Shown in pieces: positions 53,543-55,504 of a stretch of 64,000 bases of DNA. A model generated the notes under the pieces. That model saw only the letters and a list, made by a program, of their open reading frames with translations, was not told the origin of the DNA and did not search any database. How positions within the stretch are numbered: the first letter of the stretch is position 1; each line of letters starts with the position of its first letter. The DNA lies in assembly GCA_938084575.1 (NCBI GenBank), contig CALKFG010000006.1:322542-386541 (forward strand), given 5' to 3'. The DNA is from an uncultured Hyphomonadaceae bacterium (GTDB lineage: Bacteria > Pseudomonadota > Alphaproteobacteria > Caulobacterales > Hyphomonadaceae). The position numbers and the translations under genes are program-made.

Positions 53543-54652
53543 ATGGATGTCAAAGATGTCACCCCCCGGCTTGGCCTGCCCTATCTGCTGCCGAATCAGG
53601 CCCAGAAGCATGTCACGCTGAATGAAAGCCTGGCCCGGCTCGACTCGCTGGTCATGGCCAGCATTGCCGGTGCGCCGGTCAATACTCCCCCACCCGCACC
53701 TGTCGCCGGCCGCAGCTGGCTGACGGGCGCTGCGCCTACCGGGGACTGGGCCGGCCAGGCTGGTCAGATGGCGACGTTTCTGGACGGGGGATGGCAGTAT
53801 CAGACCCCCCATGCCGGCTGGATCGTCTGGGACGAAGCGGCACGCCAGCTCCGGGTTTATACCGGCGAGGACTGGGTGGCCTTGCCGGGCGGCGCGGGCA
53901 CGCGGGTCCTGCAGGAGATTGAACGGTTTGGCCTGGGCACCCGGGCCGATGCCGCCCTGCCATTCGCCGTGCGGCTGAATCAGGCCCTGTTCGCGGCCCC
54001 TGACCCGGCCGTCGGTGCAACCGGCGATATCCGGATCAGCCTGAACAAGGCGGCCGCGGACGATACGGCCAGCCTGGTGTTCCAGACCGGCTGGTCGGGG
54101 CGCGGTGAAATCGGGCTTGCCGGGGATGACCGGTTCAGCCTGAAAGTCTCGTCGGACGGGGCCGCCTGGCATCAGGGCCTCGTCCTCGATGCCAGCGCCG
54201 GCACGGTTGAAACCGATTTTCACATTGTGCCCCGGCAGGCCGGGCAGCAGGATGTTGGCCTTGCCGGTCAGCCGTTCGGGGATCTTTACCTGACCCGTGC
54301 GCCCTCCATCACCTGCGATGCCCGCAGCAAGCGGGATGTTGCGCCGCTTGCGCGTGATGTCGCCACGGCACTGGTGCAGCATTTACAGCCGGTCCAGTTT
54401 CGCCATGCCGGCGCCGGGCACCTGCATTTCGGGTTTACCGCCCAGCAGGTCCGCGCGGCCCTCGACCAGGCCGGGCAGGGGGATGTCTTCCTGTGGCGTC
54501 TGGCCGATCCGGGCAAGGCCGACAGCGTCCAGATGATCTGTCAGGAAGAGCTCATTTCCGTCCTCGTGTCGTGTCTGCAGCAGCTGATTGACCGGGTCGC
54601 CAGTCTAGAAGGACCACAACATGCGGTTCGACAGCGTCAATCGCGCCAGTAA
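53543..54652 (+). CDS. DUF2793 tail-fibre-like protein with C-terminal S74-type intramolecular chaperone domain
   Basis: LGLPYLLPNQAQKHVTLNESLARLDSLV (DUF2793); C-terminal CDARSKRDVAPLARDVATALVQHLQPVQF…FGFTAQQVRAAL resembles S74 (SDxRLKxxI… GFIAQEV). Confidence 0.82.
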   Translation: MDVKDVTPRLGLPYLLPNQAQKHVTLNESLARLDSLVMASIAGAPVNTPPPAPVAGRSWLTGAAPTGDWAGQAGQMATFLDGGWQYQTPHAGWIVWDEAARQLRVYTGEDWVALPGGAGTRVLQEIERFGLGTRADAALPFAVRLNQALFAAPDPAVGATGDIRISLNKAAADDTASLVFQTGWSGRGEIGLAGDDRFSLKVSSDGAAWHQGLVLDASAGTVETDFHIVPRQAGQQDVGLAGQPFGDLYLTRAPSITCDARSKRDVAPLARDVATALVQHLQPVQFRHAGAGHLHFGFTAQQVRAALDQAGQGDVFLWRLADPGKADSVQMICQEELISVLVSCLQQLIDRVASLEGPQHAVRQRQSRQ

Positions 54653-55049
54653 ACGGCTCGGCGCCACCTGGCGCTGGCCGCATTTCACCATTGCAGAGCT
54701 GTCCTGTCGTTGCGGCGGTCAGTTCTGCCGCGGCAGCTATTGGCACGATGAGGCCGTTCTGGATGGGCTTGAAGCCATGCGCGCCCTGATCGGCCGACCG
54801 CTGGTCATCCTGTCGGGGCATCGTTGCCCCGGTTGGAACTGGGAGGTGGGCGGCGTGGCGGGGTCGCGGCATTTGCGGCTCGCCGCCGACATCGCCGTGG
54901 CGGGCCATGACCGTGAGGCCTTGTACGAGGCGGCCTGCCAGGCCGGCTTTAACGGGCTCGGCCTCGGGCAGGATTTTTTACATGTTGACCGACGCGGCCG
55001 GCCGGCCTGCTGGGTCTATTCCGGGAGTGAAAACCTATGGCAGATCTGA
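54621..55049 (+). CDS. Peptidase M15-type D,D/L,D-peptidase, candidate GTA endolysin
   Basis: HFTIAELSCRCGG…LSGHRCPGWNWEVGGVAGSRHLRLAADIAV…FLHVD (SRHxxxxAxD and HVD zinc site); overlaps upstream gene by 32 bp. Confidence 0.82.
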   Translation: MRFDSVNRASKRLGATWRWPHFTIAELSCRCGGQFCRGSYWHDEAVLDGLEAMRALIGRPLVILSGHRCPGWNWEVGGVAGSRHLRLAADIAVAGHDREALYEAACQAGFNGLGLGQDFLHVDRRGRPACWVYSGSENLWQI

Positions 55050-55504
55050 TGTCCCTGGCCGAAAGCGCCGCAGGGGGCGGGCTGTTTGGCCTGTTTGGTA
55101 CCGTGCTGGGCCGGGCCGCGGCTTTTGTCGAGCAACGCCAGGCCATGGCACATGAGGCCGCCCGCTGGGCCCATGAGCTGAAATGGCGAGAACTGGACAT
55201 GAAGGCGCAGGCCGACCGGACACAGGCGGAACAGGCCCTGCAAGAGGTGCGCGGACGCTGGCAGGGCCTTGCCGCATCGATGAAAGCCGACGCCGGCATC
55301 GGCCGCTCCTATCCCTGGGTCGATGCTGTGCGTGGGCTGACCCGGCCGGGCCTGACCGTTCTGCTCTGGCTGATTGCCGGCACCATCTGGACAGGCGCCG
55401 ATACCATCGGCCGGCAGGCGATTATTGAAACCGCGACATTCGCTGCAACGGCTGCCACGCTGTGGTGGTTTGGCGACCGGGGGCCGCGGCGGCCACCGGG
55501 ATGA
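55037..55504 (+). CDS. GTA-type 3TM holin
   Basis: RSYPWVDAVRGLTRPGLTVLLWLIAGTIW…TAATLWWFGDRGPRR; N-terminal helix + amphipathic linker; overlaps M15 gene. Confidence 0.82.
   Translation: MADLMSLAESAAGGGLFGLFGTVLGRAAAFVEQRQAMAHEAARWAHELKWRELDMKAQADRTQAEQALQEVRGRWQGLAASMKADAGIGRSYPWVDAVRGLTRPGLTVLLWLIAGTIWTGADTIGRQAIIETATFAATAATLWWFGDRGPRRPPG

What the first reader, a model, noticed from the sequence alone, without database searches (positions are those of the whole stretch)
53543..55504. Second, remote GTA-type locus: DUF2793/S74 tail fibre, M15 peptidase and GTA holin in one coupled operon
Three overlapping genes ~23 kb from the structural cluster encode a DUF2793 fibre-like protein, a zinc M15 peptidase and a small protein matching the GTA 3TM holin pattern (SYPWVDAVRGL…WWFGDR). 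In Rhodobacter capsulatus, lysis and fibre genes are also unlinked from the main cluster. Here adhesion and lysis are combined in one compact module, and the lytic enzyme appears to be an M15 peptidase. It reads as a portable adhesion-and-release cassette for the GTA at 18.6-30.6 kb.
Basis: partly seen in the sequence, partly recalled or inferred. Interest (0 to 1): 0.8.

Follow-up and report, generated by a model that had tools for sequence, protein, structure and literature searches.

The report
GTA tail-fibre and cell-lysis operon
Three overlapping genes in a marine Henriciella-type bacterium encode a tail fibre, a wall-cutting enzyme and a probable membrane-pore protein that look like the adhesion-and-release end of the ancient virus its gene transfer agent came from; they matter because how most of this bacterial group releases such particles is unknown.

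Summary
The trio is real. It comprises a DUF2793+S74 fibre, a zinc M15_3 peptidase with its metal/catalytic residues intact, and a 155-aa membrane protein with a conserved 13-nt gene overlap. The third protein is not a Pfam GTA_holin_3TM. It is a separate holin-like family that sits beside an M15 endolysin in viral contigs, one of which has the full order GTA_TIM hub, DUF2793, small TM, M15, holin. So the trio is most likely the fibre-plus-lysis end of the prophage that became the GTA, split from the head-tail cluster.

In Hyphomonadaceae the M15-holin pair is fixed, not portable. It lies beside the same housekeeping gene and 26-58 kb downstream of the GTA on the same strand (19/19). A promoter element from GTA core promoters recurs before the pair and before many fibre genes, so co-regulation is likely clade-wide. 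It is degenerate in this window.

Evidence against: several relatives that lost the GTA core keep the pair, and presence alone does not track GTA. Best explanation: a GTA release and adhesion operon, an alternative to the LypABC route used by Caulobacter. Lysis itself is inferred.

The parts
53543..54652 (+). DUF2793 + S74-chaperone tail-fibre-like protein, 369 aa
   Evidence: Pfam DUF2793 res 27-112 (1.2e-24), Peptidase_S74 res 258-311 (1.8e-8); PHROG tail fibre hits
54621..55049 (+). Zinc M15_3 peptidase, 142 aa, no evident N-terminal hydrophobic stretch; proposed endolysin
   Evidence: Pfam 1.1e-17, PHROG endolysin 3.2e-23, fold match to Zn DD-peptidase 1lbu; S82/H84/D90/H121/D123 invariant in A5
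54870..54989 (+). M15 metal/catalytic motifs H84-x5-D90 and H121-x-D123
   Evidence: invariant across 16 diverse homologues
55037..55504 (+). Holin-like protein, 155 aa: long charged helix then two C-terminal hydrophobic helices (about 106-124 and 128-146)
   Evidence: hydropathy, AF2 helices 3-87, 93-120, 123-146 (pTM 0.31 so fold only indicative); next to M15 in viral contigs
55037..55049 (+). 13-nt overlap of M15 stop and holin start (translational coupling)
   Evidence: 49 of 74 named loci have exactly this overlap
53508..53536 (+). Candidate promoter of the trio (TCCCCC-17-TATTCT), a degenerate version of the GTA element
   Evidence: score not above controls (p 0.41); right spacing only
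18527..18562 (+). GTA core promoter element: AATCCGACCGGG, then CATGAT after the 17-bp spacer, just before the first GTA ORF
18563..30596 (+). Main GTA head-tail cluster
   Evidence: Pfam of the cluster's genes

Best explanation
The trio is the late 'adhesion and release' operon of this bacterium's gene transfer agent. It descends from the fibre-endolysin-holin end of the ancestral prophage and was separated from the head-tail cluster by ordinary genes before the Hyphomonadaceae diversified. Proposed working: in the few GTA-producing cells an activator turns on the core, fibre and lysis promoters together. The fibre joins the tail hub. The M15 enzyme accumulates in the cytoplasm without a signal peptide, the membrane protein then opens the inner membrane, and M15 cuts the peptide stems of the wall so particles escape. 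Shown here: gene content, conserved coupling, conserved location, shared promoter element in the clade, and phage synteny. Inferred: pore formation, wall cleavage, timing, and that it operates in this very genome.
For: (1) In viral contigs the same holin family lies directly beside an M15-like peptidase (L217, L219, L220, L221, L222, L224). L221 has the order GTA_TIM hub - DUF2793 - small TM - M15 - holin, and L219 has GTA_TIM hub then M15-holin. L217 is Mu-like, with the pair upstream of gp27 and terminase. (2) In 19 of 19 family genomes with both loci on one contig, the holin lies 26-58 kb downstream of the GTA on the same strand. (3) A matrix built only from GTA core promoters finds sites before the pair in 20 of 41 genomes at p<0.05 against 207 control upstream regions (Mann-Whitney 4e-15); five of the eight best 'controls' are GTA portal promoters. 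After removing similar regions, 14 of 29 have z>2. (4) 11 of 20 remote DUF2793 fibre genes also exceed the 95% control level. (5) M15 and holin co-occur strongly (47 of 54). (6) DUF2793 is the known GTA tail fibre and co-evolves with GTA genes (PMC10883770).
Against: Across 200 genomes of the order the holin's presence does not track GTA_TIM (Fisher p 0.36). In the family, 8 of 15 GTA_TIM-negative genomes keep an intact pair, including G135, G070 and G105 with no GTA_TIM, portal or gp12. The window's own trio lacks a good copy of the element. Robiginitomaculum-type loci do not show it (3 of 25). The element was first seen by eye, and related genomes are not independent. No expression or lysis data exist.
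Confidence: 0.66

Rival explanations
1. The pair is a domesticated lysis/cell-death or wall-remodelling module that serves the cell independently of the GTA; the promoter similarity reflects a shared stress regulator rather than particle release.
For: Intact pair kept in GTA-defective relatives, and dN/dS below 1 in them too. Some f3 genomes keep M15 beside NMO without the holin.
Against: The element is shared with GTA core, portal and fibre promoters. Loss or decay of the pair is more frequent in GTA_TIM-negative genomes (intact in 8/15 versus 22/26, Fisher p 0.064), with G056 and G041 visibly decayed. GTA remnants often remain at the same site, so retention may be a lag.
Confidence: 0.2
2. 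The trio is a remnant of an unrelated prophage that happened to insert near the GTA.
For: The module type occurs in several phage kinds, including a Mu-like one.
Against: Same site beside NMO across the family and in other families, no other phage genes recognised among the neighbours, conserved orientation and distance from the GTA, and the shared promoter element.
Confidence: 0.07
3. Only the fibre belongs to the GTA; the M15-holin pair is an old neighbour without a GTA role.
For: Fibre presence beside the pair is variable; many Hyphomonas have NMO-M15-holin with the fibre elsewhere.
Against: Pair and remote fibre both carry the GTA-type element; adjacent fibres mostly cluster apart from remote ones in the tree, so the arrangement looks old; phage order joins all three.
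Confidence: 0.07

Closest known systems
RcGTA late loci of Rhodobacter capsulatus: tail fibre rcc00171 and endolysin/holin rcc00555/rcc00556
   Same: DUF2793 fibre and a holin-endolysin pair outside the head-tail cluster; in R. capsulatus these late loci are switched on by the GTA regulators GafA and CtrA-P (PMC9638019)
   Different: Here fibre and lysis genes form one overlapping operon, the enzyme is M15, and the membrane protein is not PF11351. That RcGTA's endolysin is a different enzyme class is from my own knowledge and was not tested
M. nodulans LC1-LC5 prophages with rcc00171 and rcc00555 homologues next to the head-tail cluster (PMC11409702)
   Same: Fibre and lysis genes next to an RcGTA-like head-tail cluster
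   Different: There contiguous with the structural genes and with an rcc00555-type enzyme; here about 23 kb away with M15
LypABC lysis system of the Caulobacter crescentus GTA (PMC13236601)
   Same: Dedicated GTA release function encoded far from the GTA core, in the same bacterial order
   Different: LypABC is a CARD-NLR-like immune-type system; its authors found no canonical holin-endolysin genes in that species
M15 phage endolysins (e.g. Escherichia phage K1E gp43, annotated endolysin)
   Same: Related peptidase; 557 phage records match the window protein
   Different: Here chromosomal and tied to a GTA locus

Membership tests
GTA_holin_3TM (PF11351) | Match over curated cut-off 24.8 bits | tested here: not met
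   No hit at E 10; genome search 0 hits although a class-level search finds the family in 32 of 117 genomes; 8 of 22 homologues sub-threshold, best 0.0031
GTA_holin_3TM (PF11351) | N-terminal hydrophobic segment, charged helix, Arg-Pro before two C-terminal TM segments | tested here: inconclusive
   Similar layout and a conserved RP before the first C-terminal TM in both alignments, but hhalign probability only 12.7%
Holin (function) | Gene adjacent to an endolysin in phages | tested here: met
   L217, L219, L220, L221, L222, L224; not seen in the distant Vibrio phage relatives
Holin (function) | Inner-membrane pore formation triggering lysis | not testable with these tools
   needs an expression assay
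Peptidase_M15_3 (PF08291) | Match over cut-off and conserved H-x(5)-D ... H-x-D zinc/catalytic residues | tested here: met
   64.5 versus 23.2 bits; residues invariant; fold match 1lbu E 8e-5
DUF2793 GTA tail fibre (rcc00171 kind) | DUF2793 domain near the N-terminus | tested here: met
   86.5 versus 27 bits
DUF2793 GTA tail fibre (rcc00171 kind) | Present in GTA particles | not testable with these tools
   needs proteomics
Peptidase_S74 intramolecular chaperone | Match over cut-off | tested here: met
   35 versus 22 bits; but this protein has CDARSK where nearly all aligned homologues have SDxRxK
GTA regulon member | Promoter element shared with GTA core | tested here: inconclusive
   Found in many relatives (20/41), not for the window's own trio (p 0.41)
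GTA regulon member | Co-occurs with GTA core | tested here: not met
   Holin versus GTA_TIM across 200 genomes p 0.36; within the family, intact pair p 0.064
Portable cassette | Found at varying genomic sites | tested here: not met
   Mostly fixed beside NMO
LypABC-type GTA lysis | CARD-NLR-like lypABC operon | not tested
   no sequence at hand to search with

The most novel reading that the evidence does not exclude
In several Hyphomonadaceae the GTA-controlled lysis operon and its promoter have outlived the particle genes and now act as a stand-alone programmed-lysis switch, for example releasing DNA to neighbours without packaging it.
Probability: 0.12. Interest if true: 0.85.

Novelty: new variant of a known kind. 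Interest (0 to 1): 0.58.

Why it matters
Rhodobacter frees its GTA with a holin-endolysin, and Caulobacter with an immune-like LypABC system and no holin-endolysin. This module offers a concrete, testable release route for the related Hyphomonadaceae. It suggests that lysis is a replaceable part of GTA domestication, and gives an order-wide series for asking when the phage lysis module was kept, moved or replaced. The shared promoter element gives a handle on the GTA regulon in this family.

Tried and rejected
Exact element AWTCCGACSGG in the whole genome: 17 hits against 2 for the reversed control, but most appear to lie inside coding sequence (for example Asn-Pro-Thr-Gly codons), so it does not define a regulon. 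AF2 model of the holin: pTM 0.31, Foldseek hits meaningless. Distant Vibrio-phage relatives of the holin: neighbours unannotated or replication genes, no lysis context. dN/dS of the pair in GTA-defective versus intact genomes: at most slightly higher, synonymous sites often near saturation, not conclusive. Element in Robiginitomaculum-type loci: not enriched. Lysis genes downstream of NMO in the three GTA+ genomes lacking the pair (G110, G165, G190): none recognised at that site. The word-based homologue search found only 4 proteins for M15, a limit of that method, since a profile search found it in 63 of 200 genomes. LypABC could not be searched for lack of a sequence.

Full report
What is there. 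Three + strand ORFs, 53543-54652, 54621-55049 and 55037-55504, overlap by 32 and 13 nt. The first carries DUF2793 and an S74 chaperone domain, the second is Peptidase_M15_3, both above curated cut-offs. PHROGs match the first to tail-fibre families and the second to endolysins. The third matches only PHROG 6637 and, marginally, 736, both of unknown function. The main GTA cluster at 18563-30596 is genuine. The genes tested between the two loci are ordinary chromosomal ones. The window belongs to a 2.33-Mb, 96% complete assembly.

The third protein. It is not GTA_holin_3TM by that family's own test: no match at E 10, none in the genome, 8 of 22 homologues only sub-threshold, and profile-profile probability 12.7% against 18 members. 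It has a similar layout and the same Arg-Pro before its first C-terminal hydrophobic helix, so remote kinship stays possible. Its function is better inferred from context. In viral contigs its relatives lie directly beside an M15-like peptidase in L217, L219, L220, L221, L222 and L224; the L224 and L222 assignments rest on a weak Pfam hit and on reading the sequence respectively. L221 reads GTA_TIM hub, DUF2793, small TM protein, M15, holin. L223 has DUF2793 after a hub-like gene, and L219 has GTA_TIM hub then M15-holin. L217 is Mu-like, with the pair upstream of gp27 and terminase. That is where phages keep lysis genes (own knowledge). Some of these contigs could be prophages or GTA loci in host DNA; L218 clearly includes host DNA.

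The enzyme. S82, H84, D90, H121 and D123 are invariant over 16 diverse homologues. The predicted structure is good (pLDDT 91), and its only significant PDB match is the zinc DD-peptidase 1lbu; the endolysin LysECD7 appears without significance. No N-terminal hydrophobic stretch is evident, so it should need the membrane protein to reach the wall. This is inference.

A fixed locus, not a portable cassette. In 80 named genome loci the holin is almost always preceded by M15, and in most by the same NMO gene upstream. The 13-nt overlap recurs in 49 of 74. The fibre lies beside the pair in a minority; elsewhere a DUF2793 gene sits far away. In a tree of fibre N-termini adjacent copies mostly cluster apart from remote ones and include members from other families (unrooted, midpoint-rooted for display), so the trio arrangement looks old. 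Some lineages keep fibre-holin without M15 (L029, L059, L072, L076, L112), and some f3 genomes keep NMO-M15 without the holin.

Link to the GTA. In all 19 family genomes with both loci on one contig the holin is 25.7-57.6 kb downstream of GTA_TIM on the same strand. Reading upstream regions showed the same element, AATCCGACCGG with a TANNNT-like box after a 17-bp spacer, before the GTA core and before the pair. A matrix built only from 16 GTA core promoters, leaving out the tested genome, scored 20 of 41 pair regions at p<0.05 and 9 at p<0.01 against 207 upstream regions of other genes. Five of the eight best control hits are GTA portal promoters. With near-duplicates removed, 14 of 29 exceed z 2 against shuffles. 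Eleven of 20 remote fibre genes exceed the 95% control level. Caveats: the element was noticed by eye and the sites anchored by hand, genomes are related, the window's own trio has a poor copy (p 0.41), and Robiginitomaculum-type loci lack it.

The refuter. Over 200 genomes the holin does not track GTA_TIM (p 0.36). In the family an intact pair is in 22 of 26 GTA_TIM+ and 8 of 15 GTA_TIM- genomes (p 0.064). Many of the 15 retain GTA pieces such as the portal, gp12 is gone in all 15 except G160, and G140, counted as GTA+, has a gutted cluster. Two genomes show the pair decaying (G056, G041). So the pair often outlives the GTA core. This is either a lag or a second role; dN/dS does not decide.

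Known context. DUF2793 is the RcGTA tail fibre and co-evolves with GTA genes (PMC10883770). In R. capsulatus the fibre and lysis loci are separate but switched on together (PMC9638019). In M. nodulans prophages they adjoin the head-tail cluster (PMC11409702). Caulobacter lacks canonical holin-endolysin genes and uses LypABC (PMC13236601). The few papers found that mention both GTAs and Hyphomonas or Hyphomonadaceae did not appear, from titles, abstracts and the one searched inside, to describe release in this family. Within the library searched, an M15-holin GTA release module appears undescribed.

Noticed in passing
window 53500-53542: The trio's upstream region has a run of nine C inside the candidate promoter and an AAACCGACCG about 15 nt further up; the element is broken compared with relatives, or the run is an assembly or polymorphic feature.
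   Followed up: partly
window 54314-54475: The S74 domain has Cys where aligned homologues almost always have Ser (TCDARSK versus SSDARSK); from memory this Ser belongs to the self-cleavage dyad, so cleavage may be altered.
   Followed up: no
L127, L129, L137, L138, L139: In Hyphomonas the GTA cluster has a second copy of the promoter element before the portal gene, with terL further upstream than in Henriciella.
   Followed up: partly
G056, G041, G065, G140, G150, G185 and others: GTA clusters are being lost repeatedly in Hyphomonadaceae, with truncated portals or internal deletions, where placed at the conserved site.
   Followed up: partly
L059, L072, L076, L112: In Ponticaulis-type genomes the fibre keeps its DUF2793 end but has swapped the rest for repeat or beta-helix-like stretches, and no M15 gene lies between fibre and holin.
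   Followed up: partly
L217: A Mu-like viral contig carries a close relative (51% identity) of the chromosomal holin together with an M15 peptidase.
   Followed up: partly
G110, G165, G190: Family members with GTA_TIM and portal but without the M15-holin pair; their release genes are unknown.
   Followed up: partly
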